From: a virus
Reading direction: 5' to 3' (one strand)
Virus record (IMG/VR): IMGVR_UViG_3300044608_000619
Span: 1-42,834 of that record
DNA: 42,834 nt
Shown here: positions 7,010-13,062 of the stretch, one piece after another
How the letters are laid out: each line of letters opens with the position of its first letter
Numbering within the stretch: the first letter of the stretch is position 1
Notes under the pieces: model-generated
The model's input: the letters and a program-made list of their open reading frames with translations, nothing else
Databases searched by the model: none
Told to the model about the DNA's origin: nothing
Position numbers and translations under genes: made by a program

Positions 7010-7024
7010 GTATTGCGAACGTCC

Positions 7025-7936
7025 ATGAAGCTGACAAACAAGCACGGCGTCCCAGAGACAATCGTTCGAGCGGTGGCTGACGACGAGTATGACAAAGGCG
7101 ACTCCGTGCTATCGGTGACGCAAATCATCTCGCCACCACGGATAGTTGTACTTCAAAATCTAAACAAGGACAACCTAGAGTCGGATGTTATCGACAGGGT
7201 GCCGTCTTTGCTCGGCACAGCGGTCCACAAGATCATCGAGAAGGGGTCGAAGGACATACCGGGGCATATCGTCGAGGAGCGTCTGTACGCGGACGTTCTC
7301 GGATGGAGGATCTCTGGGGCCGTGGATTTGCAGATTGACAATTATGACGGAACATGGGCCATTAGAGATTATAAGGTCACCTCCGTCTACTCAGTCTTGA
7401 GCGATAAACCTGAATGGGAACAACAACTTAACTGTTATGCCTATCTGGCTGGCAAGTCCCATGGCCGCAATGTAACCAGCCTCAAGATTGTCGCAATCCT
7501 GCGGGATTGGCAACGCAAGCAAGCCGAAATCAAGGCAGACTATCCGCAGTCTCAGATCGTGATGGTTGACATCCCGGTGTGGACCCCGGAGGGGCAAGAG
7601 GCATATATCACCGAGCGCGTCGGGCTGCATCAGGCGGCACAAAAAGCTGTTGACACGGGTGAGCCGGTCGCATATTGTACGGATCAGGAGCGCTGGGTTC
7701 GTGGCGAATCATGGGCTCTCATGAAGGAGGGGCGCAAGAGCGCCGTAAAGCTATATGACAGCGAAGTCGAAGCAAACGAAGCCTTACGTGCCGCTGGAGA
7801 ATGTGGATCTGGACACTCTGTCGAACACAGACCCGGTTCAGCAATACGTTGCAAAGGAAATTACTGCCTCGTGTCAATGTGGTGCAGGCAATGGCAGGAA
7901 GAGCTTGGCGACAGCACTGGCGAAAGCACAGGCTGA
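7025..7936 (+). CDS. Cas4/RecB-like PD-(D/E)XK exonuclease with Cys cluster
   Basis: 303 residues from ATG 7025 (an in-frame TTG at 7013 is less likely because the family starts MKLTNKHG). Counting from that TTG, G-T-A-V-H at 68-72 is the helix motif with the active-site histidine, S-G-A-V-D105 and I-R-D119-Y-K121 are the nuclease acid and lysine. Cysteines at 222, 280, 285 and 291 (R-C-K-G-N-Y-C-x5-C) look like the 4Fe-4S cluster of Cas4/AddB-type nucleases. The enzyme would resect DNA ends to give single strands for the ERF annealing protein encoded next. The last 182 bases, which encode the cysteine cluster, overlap the ERF gene in another frame. Confidence 0.8.
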   Translation: MKLTNKHGVPETIVRAVADDEYDKGDSVLSVTQIISPPRIVVLQNLNKDNLESDVIDRVPSLLGTAVHKIIEKGSKDIPGHIVEERLYADVLGWRISGAVDLQIDNYDGTWAIRDYKVTSVYSVLSDKPEWEQQLNCYAYLAGKSHGRNVTSLKIVAILRDWQRKQAEIKADYPQSQIVMVDIPVWTPEGQEAYITERVGLHQAAQKAVDTGEPVAYCTDQERWVRGESWALMKEGRKSAVKLYDSEVEANEALRAAGECGSGHSVEHRPGSAIRCKGNYCLVSMWCRQWQEELGDSTGESTG

Positions 7937-8366
7937 GTGCCAGAACGTCACGATGAACAAGATCAACCCGCATTTTCGCAGCAAGTACGCGGATCTTGCG
8001 GCTGTGCGTGATGCGATCATCCCCGTGTTTAACAAGCACGGCCTCTCAATCATCCAAGCCCCGACAAGCGATCTCGTCGGCGGGTTTACACTTGAGACGC
8101 GGGTCATACACTCGTCTGGCTCGGAGATTATCTGGAACTTCCCCCTGCCGCCGGACACGTCGAAGATGCAGTCAATCGGATCTGCAATCTCGTATGCCCG
8201 GCGCTACACGCTGAGCGCCATTGCTGGTATCGCAAGTGAGGAGGACGACGATGGCAACGCGGCGACGAATACCAATGGTCGGGGATACTCCGGTGGTAAC
8301 AGTGCCGGTGGACAATCCCAAGGTAGAGGTGGACCTTCAAGCGAGACGGGAGGTATCACCCTCTGA
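7755..8366 (+). CDS. ERF-family single-strand annealing recombinase
   Basis: 203 residues. S-L-A-T-A-L-A-K-A-Q-A-E (about 50-61), I-N-P-H-F-R-S-K-Y-A-D-L-A-A-V (about 69-83), K-H-G-L-S-I-I-Q (about 93-100) and G-S-A-I-S-Y-A-R-R-Y-T-L (about 141-152) followed by E-E-D-D-D-G-N are hallmark ERF blocks. ERF proteins anneal complementary single strands in phage recombination. The tail (about 170-203) is Gly/Ser/Asn-rich and probably flexible. The start is uncertain: ATG 7755 lies deep in the nuclease gene with AAGGAGG rather far upstream; a GTG at 7803 with GGAG before it is an alternative. Either way the conserved core begins before the nuclease stop, so overlap is real. Confidence 0.85.
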   Translation: MTAKSKQTKPYVPLENVDLDTLSNTDPVQQYVAKEITASCQCGAGNGRKSLATALAKAQAECQNVTMNKINPHFRSKYADLAAVRDAIIPVFNKHGLSIIQAPTSDLVGGFTLETRVIHSSGSEIIWNFPLPPDTSKMQSIGSAISYARRYTLSAIAGIASEEDDDGNAATNTNGRGYSGGNSAGGQSQGRGGPSSETGGITL

Positions 8367-8571
8367 TTCGGGATTCGATTGGGACGCATGGTCGGGCCTT
8401 ATGATTGCCGCCCTGATCGTGCCGCGCTCGACGGATCATCTGGTGGACTACTGGAAGGCCAACGTCAATCTGCTTGATTGGGCCAAGAAGGTGAAGCCGG
8501 ATGTTTTTGAACGGATAAGGGCAGCGTTTTCTGCCCGGAAACTTGAACTCGAAGGAGGCCAAGATGGCTGA
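8251..8571 (+). CDS. Hypothetical protein overlapping ERF gene
   Basis: 106 residues from ATG 8251, which has GAGGAGG seven bases upstream inside the ERF codons for Glu-Glu-Asp. The N-terminal 40 residues (overlapping the ERF tail out of frame for 116 bases) are basic and Val/Pro-rich and look disordered. The C-terminal 60 residues are compact and helical (W-D-A-W-S-G-L, D-H-L-V-D-Y-W-K-A-N-V-N-L-L-D-W, ending in R-A-A-F-S-A-R-K-L-E-L). I recall similar small proteins beside ERF genes, without function. It may assist recombination. Confidence 0.55.
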   Translation: MATRRRIPMVGDTPVVTVPVDNPKVEVDLQARREVSPSDSGFDWDAWSGLMIAALIVPRSTDHLVDYWKANVNLLDWAKKVKPDVFERIRAAFSARKLELEGGQDG

Positions 8572-8824
8572 TTACGACAACAGGAACCGCTTCACGCTGT
8601 TCCGGAATAACCGAAAGCGAGACGGCAAGAAGGACCCGGACTTCAACGGCACCTTTACCGACGATAACAACGTCGAATACTGGATCAGTGCTTGGAGTAC
8701 GGCACCTAAGAACGGAGGAGAGAAGTTCCTCTCCGGCCTTGTCAAGCGCAAGGAGGCTGGTGGCACAGCCACGCGCCCAAAGGCAGCAGCAAACGCCGGG
8801 ATGGATGACGAAGTCCCGTTCTAA
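8564..8824 (+). CDS. DUF736-like small protein with SSB-type acidic tail
   Basis: 86 residues from ATG 8564, with GGAGG upstream inside the previous gene (8-base overlap). N-terminal blocks N-R-F-T-L-F-R-N-N-R-K and Y-W-I-S-A-W, and G-E-K-F-L-S-G-L-V-K resemble DUF736-like small beta proteins found near phage recombination genes. The last residues, MDDEVPF, match the acidic Asp/Phe tip of bacterial SSB proteins that recruits replication and repair enzymes. A single-stranded-DNA binding OB-like role alongside ERF and the nuclease is therefore likely but not proven. Confidence 0.6.
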   Translation: MADYDNRNRFTLFRNNRKRDGKKDPDFNGTFTDDNNVEYWISAWSTAPKNGGEKFLSGLVKRKEAGGTATRPKAAANAGMDDEVPF

Positions 8825-9580: not shown

Positions 9581-9825
9581 CTTGGGGTGATCACGATATC
9601 GAGATCGAGGCCATCGTTGAGAACAGCGATGGCAGCCTCACGGTGACGCTTAACATGGGCTTAGAGGCGCTAAAGACCTTCGCGGCACTCGGCGTTTACA
9701 CGACACTTCTGGACAAGGCTAAGGAGGCCGTGGCCGATGGATATCTTAACCCCAAAGGGGCAGAAGACAAGGGAACAGGAGAGGGAGGCGCTGACCCTCT
9801 TTCTGGAGACTTTCCCACGGTATAG
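9577..9825 (+). CDS. Small acidic protein, GTG start
   Basis: 82 residues from the GTG at 9577, which overlaps the previous TGA; AAGG lies nine bases upstream. The product begins as TWGDHDIEIEAIVENSDG, a strand-rich segment, then N-M-G-L-E-A-L-K-T-F-A-A-L-G-V and a helix. The pattern 'short beta hairpin, then L-x-M-x-x-E-A-L' is one I recall in small phage proteins without function. The C-terminal 25 residues are Gly/Asp-rich and overlap the next gene for 89 bases in another frame. Confidence 0.45.
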   Translation: MTWGDHDIEIEAIVENSDGSLTVTLNMGLEALKTFAALGVYTTLLDKAKEAVADGYLNPKGAEDKGTGEGGADPLSGDFPTV

Positions 9826-10219
9826 CTTCGTTGAGACCCCGAAGGACAAACCCTCAGACCTTGATGGGTTCGTGACAAGGGATGGCGTGATCATCTCCGG
9901 CGTCGAGGTTAAGTGCCGCAACATGACGGCGTCAGAGCTTCGCAACAAGTTTGACAACAGATGGTTGATCACCGCAGACAAGCTGGATAGGTGTGTAAAC
10001 ATCTGCCGATCCCTCTGTATTGACTTCCGGGGTTTTCTATATCTGGTGCCCGACAAGATGCTGATCGTGGTGCCGATCTTCTCCCACGAGAAAGGCTGGC
10101 TTACAGAGCCGATCTACGACTGGACTGAGACACAGGCCACTGTGAACGGCGGGATTGCCGAGCGCCTTAACGCCTACGTGGATGTCGGACATGCCACTTC
10201 AATCGTCGCGGCTGCGTAG
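9737..10219 (+). CDS. PD-(D/E)XK-like nuclease
   Basis: 160 residues. P-S-D-L-D-G-F (40-45), then G-V-E-V-K (55-59) within a strand pair, is the acidic and E-x-K core of PD-(D/E)XK nucleases. The following basic helix (ELRNKFDNRWLITADKLDRC) fits the helix that completes the active site. Length and fold order resemble small phage or Holliday-junction-type nucleases. AAGGAGG lies about nine bases before the ATG, inside the previous gene. It precedes an HNH protein, so the cluster may process recombination or packaging intermediates. Function is inference. Confidence 0.55.
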   Translation: MDILTPKGQKTREQEREALTLFLETFPRYSFVETPKDKPSDLDGFVTRDGVIISGVEVKCRNMTASELRNKFDNRWLITADKLDRCVNICRSLCIDFRGFLYLVPDKMLIVVPIFSHEKGWLTEPIYDWTETQATVNGGIAERLNAYVDVGHATSIVAAA

Positions 10220-10478
10220 CAAGAAACATCTCGCCCACGTTCGGAGCTTCGGGTGCTGCATCTGCAAGAACCCCGCAGCAGACGCCCACCACCTGAGATC
10301 CGAGGGCCATCTGGCTTCTGCGGCACTCAAGAACGGTGACGACTTCACGATACCCTTGTGCCGGAAACACCACGACGAGCTTCACGCTTTCGGGGACGAG
10401 AAATTATTTCTTGACTTGCACGGGATTGATGCTAAGGTGGTTCTCGCTCAAATGAAGGAGGGCAAAGATGACGTTTAA
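10191..10478 (+). CDS. HNH-type nuclease domain protein (DUF968-like)
   Basis: 95 residues from ATG 10191 (29-base overlap with the nuclease gene). C22/C25 in G-C-C-I-C, then A-D-A-H-H (31-34), K-N-G-D-D-F-T-I-P-L-C (48-57) and R-K-H-H-D-E-L-H-A-F-G (59-69) are the zinc and HNH elements of DUF968/NinG-like recombination nucleases, which cut branched DNA or act at packaging. All key Cys and His positions appear present. Its stop overlaps the start of the HD gene. Confidence 0.72.
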   Translation: MPLQSSRLRSKKHLAHVRSFGCCICKNPAADAHHLRSEGHLASAALKNGDDFTIPLCRKHHDELHAFGDEKLFLDLHGIDAKVVLAQMKEGKDDV

Positions 10479-11022
10479 GGTAAAGCTTCGAGAGAAGATT
10501 GAGTACGACGCCGCCGGGTCGTTCGCGCTGGAGCGGCACGGTGAGCAGGAGCATGGCTGCCTCAAGATCGGGGACCATCTTCGTGACGTTGTGGCCAACG
10601 TCCGCAAGCACTACGACCCGCATGTAAACAGCCGCAGCCCCGAGGAACTGATAGCTGCTGCTTGGCTGCACGACATCGTCGAGGACACCAGCACGGACCC
10701 CGAAGAGATCGCCAAGAGGTTCGGCGACTCGGTGGAGGAGGTCGTGTCCCTACTGACGGACAAGGCTGGCCGCAACCGGATGGAGCGTCACCTTCGCACG
10801 TACCACATGATCCGCCGCGACCCGGATGCCACGCTGATCAAGCTGTGTGATCGGCGGCACAATCACGAGAGGTCCATAAAGCACGGCGAACGCTACGCAG
10901 TTATGTACCGGGACGAATACGTTTACTTCAAGTTCGCCCTCTGGACGCCCCACAAGTTCAAGGCACTGTGGGAGGAACTGGACGATCAATACGAGCAGAT
11001 GAAGAGGATGCTGTCATGGTGA
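10468..11022 (+). CDS. HD-domain phosphohydrolase, MESH1/SpoT-like
   Basis: 184 residues, strong AGGAGG before the ATG. H37, then A-A-W-L-H68-D69-I-V-E-D73 and L-I-K-L-C-D128-R-R-H-N (124-132) form the HD-domain metal site with the E-D motif found in RelA/SpoT hydrolase domains and the stand-alone MESH1 enzymes. Between them, I-A-K-R-F-G-D-S-V-E-E-V-V-S-L-L-T-D matches the helix of the family. Full-length SpoT synthetase parts are absent. The likely reaction is removal of pyrophosphate from an alarmone such as ppGpp or a related nucleotide, which could lower host stringent or defence signalling; the substrate is not shown by the sequence. Confidence 0.78.
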   Translation: MTFKVKLREKIEYDAAGSFALERHGEQEHGCLKIGDHLRDVVANVRKHYDPHVNSRSPEELIAAAWLHDIVEDTSTDPEEIAKRFGDSVEEVVSLLTDKAGRNRMERHLRTYHMIRRDPDATLIKLCDRRHNHERSIKHGERYAVMYRDEYVYFKFALWTPHKFKALWEELDDQYEQMKRMLSW

Positions 11023-11489
11023 TGACGTATCTCGACGGCGGCTTGGTAAAAGATGTGTCCGAGCAGATTGATGTAAGCATCTCAAGGGCGGCCAAGGCTG
11101 TTGAATTTGTCCTACGGGATGTGGCAAAGAGGTTGGAGAGTGTCTCCAATGAAGAGGACAACCCGATAAAATCATCCGCAATGAAGGATGTTGCAAGGGT
11201 AGTCAGGAAACACGCACGACACACAGTGAATATCTTTAAGGAAAATGAAATGGCAGACCGCAACTACAAAAAGGAATACGAGGAATTTCACGCGACCCCG
11301 GAGCAGAAGAAGCGCCGCGCTCAACGTAACACCGCCCGCAAGAAGGCCATGGCCGCTGGCAAGGTCAAGAAGGGCGACGGCAAGGAAGTGGATCACATCG
11401 GGGCACCCCGCAAGGGATCTCTGGATGGTGTGCCGACGCAGGTGATCTCGAAGGAGGCCAACCGCTCTAAGCAGCCAAAGAGGAGCTAA
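11016..11489 (+). CDS. Two-part basic protein, possible fusion or nested genes
   Basis: 157 residues if the ATG at 11016 (overlapping the HD gene end) is used. Residues 1-78 are an HTH-like helical segment (V-S-E-Q-I-D-V-S-I-S-R-A-A-K-A-V-E-F-V). From residue 79 the sequence M-A-D-R-N-Y-K-K-E-Y-E-E-F-H starts what I know as a separate small phage protein family: it continues with a highly basic helix (Q-K-K-R-R-A-Q-R-N-T-A-R-K-K) and K-G-D-G-K-E-V-D-H-I. AAGGA lies seven bases before that internal ATG at 11250, so an independent 79-residue product is plausible. Function unknown; a nucleic-acid-binding role is likely from charge. Confidence 0.5.
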   Translation: MVMTYLDGGLVKDVSEQIDVSISRAAKAVEFVLRDVAKRLESVSNEEDNPIKSSAMKDVARVVRKHARHTVNIFKENEMADRNYKKEYEEFHATPEQKKRRAQRNTARKKAMAAGKVKKGDGKEVDHIGAPRKGSLDGVPTQVISKEANRSKQPKRS

Positions 11490-11764: not shown

Positions 11765-11794
11765 GCAAGCACGAAGAGTTTGACGGAGACACCA

Positions 11795-12247
11795 ATGACT
11801 GAGTGGGCAGAGAAGAATACGCTCCAGTGCGAGGTGGTTAAGATCGCCATGTCACAGGACAAGAACGGCCACATCCTCAAGCTGGCCATCCATCCCAATG
11901 ATCTGCCGAAGGATCTGGTCCTCGATCCTCTCGGATCCCGTTACGTGATGGTGCTTGCGCGTCTAAACGATCAGGACGAAGTCGTCCAGCCAAAGGAGAA
12001 GAGCGAAGGTGATAAGGCGGTGGATATTGCCGGTCTTCTGTGCCGTAATCCTAGGTTCGTTTCTTGGCTTGCTGATCGCGGTTACAGTCGTGATGAATCT
12101 CAGGCTGCCGCAGCAGATGCCCTTAGAGAATTTTGTGCCGTCAAATCCAGAGCCGAGTTGGCCACCAACGAGGACGCACGTCGCAAGTTCAACGTCCTGA
12201 AAAACGAGTTCGAGCTTGCCGTGAAGAAGGGGGAAGTGCCGAAATGA
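11795..12247 (+). CDS. Conserved phage protein of unknown function
   Basis: 150 residues from ATG 11795 with GGAGA seven bases upstream; an in-frame TTG slightly earlier is less likely. Residues 5-60 (N-T-L-Q-C-E-V-V-K-I-A-M-S-Q-D-K-N-G-H-I-L-K-L-A-I-H-P-N-D-L and L-D-P-L-G-S-R-Y-V-M-V-L-A-R) form a beta-rich domain that I recall from replication regions of alphaproteobacterial phages, without known role. The second half is a helical region rich in Ala and Arg/Glu. Its TGA overlaps the integrase ATG. Confidence 0.55.
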   Translation: MTEWAEKNTLQCEVVKIAMSQDKNGHILKLAIHPNDLPKDLVLDPLGSRYVMVLARLNDQDEVVQPKEKSEGDKAVDIAGLLCRNPRFVSWLADRGYSRDESQAAAADALREFCAVKSRAELATNEDARRKFNVLKNEFELAVKKGEVPK

Positions 12248-13062
12248 ATTTCGCAAAGCTGTTCCGGCTATACGAGGCTTCGCCGGGGTTTGACAAATTG
12301 TCGCACCGCTCGAAGCAAGCCTACGTCTACTGCTCGAAGAGGCTTGAGGATGAACTTGGCAAGGAGGACGTATCCAACCTTCGCCGCTCCACGTTCCTCG
12401 CAATGCAAGCCCGTCTGCGTCACCGCCCGGCACTGGTCAACCTGATGACCCGCGTTGCCTCTGTTACGATGTCCTATGGCGTTGACATGGACATTATTCC
12501 GGCGAACCCCGTTGCGGGGCTCAAGTCCTTGAAGATTGGCTCTCACGTTCGTTGGGAACCCGACGAGGTCAGGAAGGTGATTGCCCTGAATGATAGGAAG
12601 ATCTCTACGGCGGTGGCAATCGCGTGGTACACCGGCCAACGCGAGTCCGACATCCTCGGTTTGCGCTGGTCCGACATCGACGATGGCTACCTGTGCATTA
12701 CGCAGCAGAAGACCAAGCGTGAGTTGAAGATCCGGCTTCACAAGGATCTGATCGACTATCTGGATGCCATTCGCAATGGAGACCCCGAAGACTACTTCAT
12801 CGTGTCTGGTAAGGTGCGTATGACGGACGGCGCTTTCCGTGCGGCATTCCGCAGGAAGATGGACGGGATCGGTATCGAGAAGACGTTCCACGGCATCCGC
12901 AAGGGCGTTGCTTCGTCTCTCGCGGAGAACGGAAGCTCTATAAACGAGATCGCCGCCATCCTTGGACACAAGTCCATACGAATGGCGGCGTACTACGCGG
13001 AACAGGCAAGCGGGAAGAAGCTGGTCGAGAATGCCGTGAGCAGTATCACGTCCTGCGTCTAG
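12244..13062 (+). CDS. int: Tyrosine recombinase / integrase
   Basis: 272 residues from the ATG that overlaps the previous stop as ATGA. The N-terminal 95 residues are an SAM-like DNA-binding domain. The catalytic domain shows R133 (G-Q-R-E-S-D-I-L-G-L-R-W), a beta-hairpin lysine near 156-158, H216-x-x-R219 (F-H-G-I-R), H242 (L-G-H-K-S) and the nucleophile tyrosine at 250 or 251 (A-A-Y-Y-A-E-Q). All tetrad positions look intact, so this phage could integrate into a host chromosome. No obvious attP core or excisionase-like gene is next to it: the gene ends in a CTAG shared with the convergent polyvalent gene. Confidence 0.9.
   Translation: MNFAKLFRLYEASPGFDKLSHRSKQAYVYCSKRLEDELGKEDVSNLRRSTFLAMQARLRHRPALVNLMTRVASVTMSYGVDMDIIPANPVAGLKSLKIGSHVRWEPDEVRKVIALNDRKISTAVAIAWYTGQRESDILGLRWSDIDDGYLCITQQKTKRELKIRLHKDLIDYLDAIRNGDPEDYFIVSGKVRMTDGAFRAAFRRKMDGIGIEKTFHGIRKGVASSLAENGSSINEIAAILGHKSIRMAAYYAEQASGKKLVENAVSSITSCV

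What the first reader, a model, noticed from the sequence alone, without database searches (positions are those of the whole stretch)
10468..11022. Stand-alone HD hydrolase of MESH1/SpoT type in a phage
All HD metal residues (H37, H68-D69, D128) and the E-D motif are present, without a synthetase part. A phage enzyme that removes alarmones could block stringent or toxic-nucleotide defence during infection.
Basis: established knowledge. Interest (0 to 1): 0.5.

Follow-up and report, generated by a model that had tools for sequence, protein, structure and literature searches.

The report
Phage small alarmone-type HD hydrolase
A phage gene encodes a small stand-alone enzyme of the family that removes bacterial stress-signal nucleotides; enzymes like it are already known in phages, but this branch has an altered base-reading motif, so what it really cuts is open.

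Summary
Window 10468-11022 (+) encodes a 184-aa HD protein with H37, H68-D69, D128 and E72-D73, without a synthetase part. Sequence, predicted fold (pLDDT 91; VIA-align Z about 20 to P. aeruginosa SAH and MESH1) and tree place it among RelA/SpoT-type small alarmone hydrolases (SAHs). dN/dS is 0.07-0.16 in the 5 of 10 pairs that could be scored. The gene is in 11 of 11 slots of close metagenomic relatives and 0 of 60 slots of farther ones.

The idea is not new: phage alarmone hydrolases were predicted as counter-defence in 2021, and phage SSU5 PaSpo is used against toxSAS toxins.

Fourteen other rows, all from viral records, carry Q-x-Y/H-G/A. A solved (p)ppApp hydrolase also lacks that arginine. 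So (p)ppGpp should not be assumed as substrate. My guess is a 3'-pyrophosphohydrolase, perhaps for adenosine 3'-pyrophosphates ((p)ppApp or toxSAS-modified tRNA ends). Substrate and counter-defence role are inferred, not shown.

The parts
10468..11022 (+). SAH-type HD hydrolase gene, 184 aa; metal ligands H37, H68, D69, D128; E72-D73; N132; variant HD1 QEHGCLKI (residues 27-34)
10155..10478 (+). HNH nuclease-like ORF (DUF968/HNHc_6) overlapping the HD start by 11 bases; an HNH homologue lies upstream of HD (not always adjacent) in the 11 of 11 exonuclease-found loci that reach the slot
9737..10219 (+). weakly PD-(D/E)XK-like ORF upstream (PF24579 below cut-off)
10968..11489 (+). downstream ORF of unknown function (phrog_4590); its listed start overlaps the HD gene, true start uncertain
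11780..12247 (+). downstream marker ORF (phrog_5358, unknown function) that closes the slot in related phages
12133..13062 (+). integrase (phrog_1, 1.4e-40); listed TTG start overlaps the previous ORF, true start probably inside
7013..8824 (+). exonuclease (7013-7936), Erf-like annealing protein (7755-8366) and SSB-like ORF (8543-8824) opening the slot

Best explanation
The gene encodes a metal-dependent small alarmone hydrolase of a phage-borne branch. The HD/ED active site would remove a phosphate or pyrophosphate from the 3' (or 2') ribose position of a nucleotide, as its characterised relatives do. Acquired by one group of these phages and kept under selection, it most likely protects phage replication by undoing a 3'-pyrophosphorylated product made by the host during infection. 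Because the HD1 arginine and its neighbour in SpoT, Rel and MESH1 are replaced by His-Gly (Tyr-Gly or Tyr-Ala in most phage relatives of this type), I favour adenosine 3'-pyrophosphates: (p)ppApp, or the pyrophosphorylated CCA end of tRNA made by toxSAS immunity proteins. (p)ppGpp is not excluded. Shown: family, predicted fold, intact catalytic residues, purifying selection, presence in one slot of close relatives only, variant HD1. Inferred: substrate, timing in infection, counter-defence role.
For: Fold: pLDDT 91, pTM 0.88; Foldseek best hit SAH 6z3n (1.3e-6), MESH1 3nr1 at 9.9e-6; VIA-align Z 20.5 to SAH 6yvc (rmsd 2.5, 169 aligned), 20.2 to MESH1 5vxa, 16.5 to (p)ppApp hydrolase 7smg, against 8.9 to DatZ 6zpa. 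Catalytic set kept in 51 of 51 and 9 of 9 rows (partly selected for). dN/dS 0.07-0.16 in the 5 of 10 pairs that could be scored. HD in 11 of 11 slots where the exonuclease is at least 54% identical, 0 of 60 slots where it is 48% or less. HD1: QxHGCLKI in 11 of 11 family rows; R-K in RelSeq, MESH1 and PaSpo and R-S in SpoT; D-K in the solved (p)ppApp hydrolase. Tree: the window family (SH-aLRT 98) lies in a group of 19 rows, all from viral records, support 84. Precedent: SAHs undo toxSAS products, including tRNA pyrophosphorylation (PMC9765508 introduction passage); phage SSU5 PaSpo neutralises toxSAS (PMC9712102 passage). Relatives precede NAD-rebuilding genes in two related records.
Against: I found no biochemical data for any member of this branch. 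HD1-R enzymes also act on adenosine products (MESH1 on (p)ppApp, PMC7644958 abstract; PaSpo on toxSAS), so losing the arginine does not prove a change of base. Viral rows with the HD1 arginine also exist (8 of the 26 viral rows outside the family). The slot holds no protein known to PADLOC (0 of 8). A Y-type relative in L007 lies between the ribonucleotide reductase subunit genes, which points to nucleotide metabolism instead. The 19-row viral group is not strongly supported (84, not starred), some Y/H-type rows (L007, L032, L173, L175) fall outside it, and one of its rows, L019, also occurs in a bacterial genome contig (L059). The base-stacking role of the HD1 arginine is recalled (Hogg 2004), not tested here.
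Confidence: 0.5

Rival explanations
1. A plain (p)ppGpp hydrolase that keeps host alarmone low during infection, so that host ribosomes and transcription stay active for the phage.
For: Nearest solved relatives by fold are SAH and MESH1 and by sequence include SpoT and Rel; a phage paper speculates on interference with (p)ppGpp signalling by a phage SAH (PMC12846349 passages).
Against: HD1 arginine and P-Y of the (p)ppGpp-cleaving enzymes SpoT, RelSeq and MESH1 are replaced in 11 of 11 family rows; an SAH with strong (p)ppApp but negligible (p)ppGpp activity exists (SAHMex, PMC7644958 abstract; its HD1 was not looked at).
Confidence: 0.25
2. Aph1-type immunity protein that protects the lysogen from a phage-borne MuF/Apk2 (p)ppApp-making toxin.
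For: Phages do carry such HD proteins: Mannheimia phage 1152AP2 and Aggregatibacter phage S1249 have MuF or minor head gene, small ORF, HD gene in a row, and the Mannheimia HD protein best matches the solved (p)ppApp hydrolase 7smg, 4.3e-23.
Against: Here the gene is in the recombination/integrase block, not beside head genes; no RelA_SpoT domain in the window or 15 related records (0 of 16; the records may be fragments and Apk2 domains may be too divergent for that model); the tree puts the Aph1-like rows elsewhere and their HD1 is Q-x-D-K.
Confidence: 0.06
3. A nucleotide-metabolism or cofactor enzyme, for example acting on NADP(H), PAPS or other 3'-/2'-phosphates, rather than on alarmones.
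For: Relatives lie beside NMN adenylyltransferase-NUDIX and NAMPT genes (L019 and phage Cp1R7A-A1) and between ribonucleotide reductase genes (L007); MESH1 structures with NADPH and PAPS exist.
Against: No such neighbour was seen in the annotated window genes (not every ORF was scanned); HDxxED and the K-L-x-D-R-x-x-N stretch of the RSH hydrolases are kept; NAD-rebuilding genes are themselves described as counter-defence in phages (PMC12846349 passage).
Confidence: 0.15

Closest known systems
PaSpo SAH of Salmonella phage SSU5 (taken here to be SSU5_099, by its annotation; 50001-53299 of the record was not opened)
   Same: Phage-encoded stand-alone RSH hydrolase domain; same catalytic residues; PaSpo is reported to neutralise toxSAS toxicity (PMC9712102 passage)
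   Different: 26% identity to the window protein; keeps HD1 R-K (QKRKYTGEDYINH); in another part of the tree
HD-alarmone phosphodiesterases of jumbo phages (e.g. BBI90576.1)
   Same: Predicted phage HD alarmone hydrolases proposed as counter-nucleotide defence (PMC7824862 passages)
   Different: That sequence was not fetched or compared here; the window is a 43-kb integrase-bearing virus record
P. aeruginosa SAH (6yvc/6z3n) and human MESH1 (3nr1/5vxa)
   Same: Same fold over 166-169 residues, Z about 20; MESH1 has the same metal and E-D residues
   Different: About 24% identity; MESH1's HD1 R-K and P-Y are replaced by H-G and K-I (the HD1 of the P. aeruginosa SAH was not printed)
Aph1 (p)ppApp hydrolases (7smg; Mannheimia phage 1152AP2 protein)
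   Same: HD hydrolases of the same superfamily without the HD1 arginine
   Different: Shorter, Q-x-D-K HD1; the phage ones sit beside MuF or head genes; separate in the tree
PHROG 990 metal-dependent phosphohydrolase
   Same: Best phage protein family, 1.7e-28
   Different: A broad label; the listing gives no tested function

Membership tests
RSH small alarmone hydrolase (SAH) | Metal-binding H...HD...D and HDxxED of the RSH hydrolase domain | tested here: met
   H37, H68-D69, D128, E72-D73; 51 of 51 rows
RSH small alarmone hydrolase (SAH) | Stand-alone: no synthetase domain | tested here: met
   184 aa with only HD families above cut-off; PF04607 in 0 of 16 records
RSH small alarmone hydrolase (SAH) | RSH hydrolase fold | tested here: met
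   predicted model: Z 20.5 to 6yvc, 20.2 to 5vxa
RSH small alarmone hydrolase (SAH) | Hydrolysis of (p)ppGpp or (p)ppApp | not testable with these tools
   needs purified enzyme
MESH1 subgroup | HD1 stretch Q-x-R-K...P-Y-x-x-H as in 3nr1 | tested here: not met
   QEHGCLKIGDH in window, QxHGCLKI in 11 of 11 family rows
MESH1 subgroup | Groups with MESH1 in a tree | tested here: not met
   Window family groups with viral rows (84); MESH1 lies in a starred group of 23 rows (95); quick tree, midpoint root
Aph1 (p)ppApp hydrolase immunity | Next to a MuF/Apk2 toxin gene | tested here: not met
   Gene lies between HNH-like and integrase genes; no PF04607
Aph1 (p)ppApp hydrolase immunity | (p)ppApp-hydrolysing activity | not testable with these tools
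   needs assay
DatZ/YfbR dNTP phosphohydrolase | Fold closer to DatZ than to SAH | tested here: not met
   DatZ 6zpa Z 8.9 against about 20 for SAH and MESH1
Phage counter-defence protein | Restores phage growth against a defence | not testable with these tools
   needs plating experiments

The most novel reading that the evidence does not exclude
This phage branch of SAH has rebuilt its base-reading HD1 motif to strip the 3'-pyrophosphate from the CCA end of tRNA (or from (p)ppApp) made by toxSAS immunity such as CapRel, making it a dedicated phage antidote to that defence rather than a stringent-response enzyme.
Probability: 0.2. Interest if true: 0.65.

Novelty: new variant of a known kind. 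Interest (0 to 1): 0.36.

Why it matters
If the altered HD1 motif marks a change of substrate, this branch would give a sequence rule for telling phage antidotes to adenosine 3'-pyrophosphate toxins from ordinary (p)ppGpp hydrolases, and would predict which phages resist toxSAS immunity. If it is just another (p)ppGpp hydrolase, it is an ordinary phage accessory gene of a kind found in 170 of 50,697 phage records at E 0.001.

Tried and rejected
DatZ-like dATPase: rejected on fold ranking (Z 8.9 against about 20); its partner genes were not searched for. RelA/SpoT toxin in the giant LPD38 protein of these phages: a homologue in Synechococcus phage MinM2 is labelled 'RelA/SpoT', but Pfam finds only LPD38 and a sub-cut-off ART hit, and PF04607 gives 0 of 16 records of the window's own group (MinM2 was not in that search). 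Defence-system label: PADLOC 0 of 8 slot proteins. Close isolates: megablast of window 18000-42834 found no phage record. Promoter- and terminator-like sites around the slot: 1 and 4 found, 2.2 and 3.8 expected. [quoted passage not shown] A rise in third-position GC of the HD gene (0.79 against 0.61-0.71 in six neighbours) fits an acquired gene but is weak.

Rows dropped: for the 51-row motif table I used 12 of the 25 viral loci (the other 13 repeat a used row or showed the same match values; L010, L013 and L014 were not translated), 20 of the 26 genome loci (L059, L077, L079, L080, L083, L084 left out as a duplicate, partial or odd), 7 loci, 8 phage proteins, SpoT, the window and 2 PDB segments. 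The tree left out L002 and L015 as near copies. One search found 170 phage records; I opened the region of 17 and used 16 of these proteins; L029 (unannotated; its motif, printed, is also Q-x-Y-G) was left out of the counts. SSU5 and MinM2 were opened for other reasons. One search kept the best 80 of 110 loci.

Papers: PMC12846349, PMC7824862, PMC11782079, PMC8118318, PMC9712102, PMC9765508, PMC7644958, PMC3153485, PMC13376610 and PMC11699363 were seen as passages; PMC12226406 as part 1 of 4 (abstract, introduction, start of methods); others only as listings. Jimmy 2020 and Ahmad 2023 were not held, and Hogg 2004 was not opened (recalled or cited through others). The searches behind 'not found in print' were made; they cover open-licence PMC papers only.

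Full report
What is there. Window 10468-11022 (+) is one ORF of 184 aa. It starts with ATG behind a good ribosome-binding site and overlaps the end of an HNH-like ORF by 11 bases. Pfam HD_4 and HD pass their cut-offs. PHROG 990 matches at 1.7e-28. The spoT_relA model matches over residues 59-133 only. PDB sequence hits are SpoT, MESH1, SAH and Rel chains. No synthetase domain is in the ORF, and PF04607 gives 0 of 16 records for the window and 15 related ones.

Fold. With a 28-row alignment AlphaFold2 gives pLDDT 91 and pTM 0.88. Foldseek ranks P. aeruginosa SAH first (6z3n, 1.3e-6), with MESH1 3nr1 at 9.9e-6. VIA-align gives Z 20.5 (6yvc), 20.2 (5vxa), 17.9 (SpoT 7qpr), 16.5 ((p)ppApp hydrolase 7smg), 13.3 (YpgQ) and 8.9 (DatZ). 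So it resembles RSH-type hydrolases much more than dNTPase-type HD proteins.

Selection and genome setting. The record is a 42.8-kb virus contig with primase-helicase, endonuclease VII-like, RusA, exonuclease, Erf, SSB, integrase, LPD38 giant protein, tail fibre and virion protein genes. I searched IMG/VR with the exonuclease, not with the HD gene; the best 80 of 110 loci were kept. Among 13 loci with exonuclease identity of 54% or more, 11 reach the slot's far marker and all 11 hold an HD orthologue; 2 are cut off before it. Among 67 loci at 48% or less, 60 reach the marker and none holds one. So the gene was gained in (or, less likely, lost outside) one group and is kept there. These loci show at most 9 kb on each side, so an HD gene elsewhere in those genomes is not excluded. 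dN/dS is 0.07-0.16 for the 5 of 10 pairs that could be scored; dS was saturated for the other 5.

In RelSeq, MESH1 and PaSpo the stretch before the first metal histidine holds R-K shortly after a conserved glutamine, and in SpoT R-S; SpoT, RelSeq and MESH1 also have P-Y there. HD1-6 are described as holding residues for base coordination, metal coordination and attack (PMC9765508 passage); the stacking role of the HD1 arginine is recalled from Hogg 2004. Here it reads Q-E-H-G-C-L-K-I-G-D-H, and QxHGCLKI is invariant in 11 of 11 family rows, the window and 10 orthologues, at 49-97% identity to the window in the pairs scored. Over 60 rows (51 and 9): 11 are the window family; 14 others have Y or H followed by G or A at that place and all 14 come from viral records (one of them, L019, also occurs in a bacterial genome contig, L059); 23 have arginine; 12 have something else. 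Of the 26 viral rows outside the family, 14 are of the Y/H type, 8 keep the arginine and 4 have something else, so the variant is common in phages but not universal. The 12 include the two head-gene-linked HD proteins, whose Q-x-D-K also occurs in the solved (p)ppApp hydrolase 7smg. The six catalytic residues are kept in all 60; N132 is kept in 57, with H in L019 and T in L068 and L071. Many rows were fetched with a WLHDIVE(D) pattern, so only the orthologues reached through the exonuclease test the HDxxED without bias; all 7 new ones keep it.

Tree. In a 58-row tree (quick method, SH-aLRT only, midpoint root) the window family is one group (98). It falls in a set of 19 rows, all from viral records (support 84, below the starred level). 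MESH1, SpoT, RelSeq, PaSpo and 13 of the 20 genome rows are in another group of 23 rows (95). The Aph1-like proteins lie elsewhere. Y/H-type rows L007, L032, L173 and L175 fall outside the 19, so the motif is not shown to have arisen once.

What it probably does. The chemistry is the safest part: a metal-dependent phosphohydrolase acting on a ribose-linked phosphate or pyrophosphate. The biological substrate is inferred. Known SAHs act on (p)ppGpp, (p)ppApp and pyrophosphorylated tRNA (PMC9765508 passages), and specificities differ strongly between SAHs (PMC7644958 abstract and passages). The replaced HD1 motif, and the lack of that arginine in a solved (p)ppApp hydrolase, make me favour adenosine 3'-pyrophosphates over (p)ppGpp. 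CapRel pyrophosphorylates tRNA after sensing a phage capsid protein (PMC9712102 and PMC11782079 passages), so counter-defence is a natural role. The window itself offers no supporting neighbour. Relatives give mixed hints. In phage Cp1R7A-A1 and in L019 (two related rows) the HD gene precedes NMN adenylyltransferase-NUDIX and NAMPT genes. In phage COT4 it is near an RNA ligase and a ribose-phosphate pyrophosphokinase-like gene. In L007 it lies between the two ribonucleotide reductase genes.

Relation to the literature. Phage HD-alarmone phosphodiesterases as counter-defence were proposed in PMC7824862. A phage SAH is discussed in PMC12846349, which says its nucleotide preference is hard to predict. 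Phage SSU5 PaSpo is reported to neutralise toxSAS toxins (PMC9712102). MuF toxins with Aph1 hydrolases are described in PMC12226406. The finding is therefore a member of a known kind. The variant HD1 in a viral branch is the part I did not find described in the searches listed, which covered only open-licence papers.

Noticed in passing
L007:3623-7680: A Y-type SAH gene sits between the ribonucleotide reductase large and small subunit genes of a viral contig; the same protein is in four other contigs (L008, L009, L011, L012, whose neighbours were not looked at). A possible link to nucleotide metabolism.
   Followed up: partly
L019:6001-9063 and L031:2992-6084: SAH gene followed by NMN adenylyltransferase-NUDIX and NAMPT genes, resembling a phage NAD-rebuilding module.
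   Followed up: partly
window:13059-20063: 2334-aa polyvalent protein with LPD38; weak sub-cut-off metallopeptidase-toxin match near residues 665-709 (E 0.033).
   Followed up: no
L171:2112-10523: Giant LPD38 protein of Synechococcus phage MinM2 is annotated RelA/SpoT, but Pfam finds no such domain at E up to 1: probably a wrong label.
   Followed up: partly
window:8996-9580: 194-aa ORF in the slot, conserved at 75-99% identity in L002-L004, with no PHROG, Pfam or PADLOC match at the limits used.
   Followed up: no
L172:2112-4405 and L179:1426-4339: Mannheimia and Aggregatibacter phages carry MuF (or minor head) gene, small ORF, Aph1-like HD gene in a row, like the published apk2-iapK-aph1 order.
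   Followed up: partly
L065, L066, L068, L072: Bacterial SAH-like domains at the start of long ORFs (443-513 codons stop to stop) with an unexamined C-terminal part.
   Followed up: no
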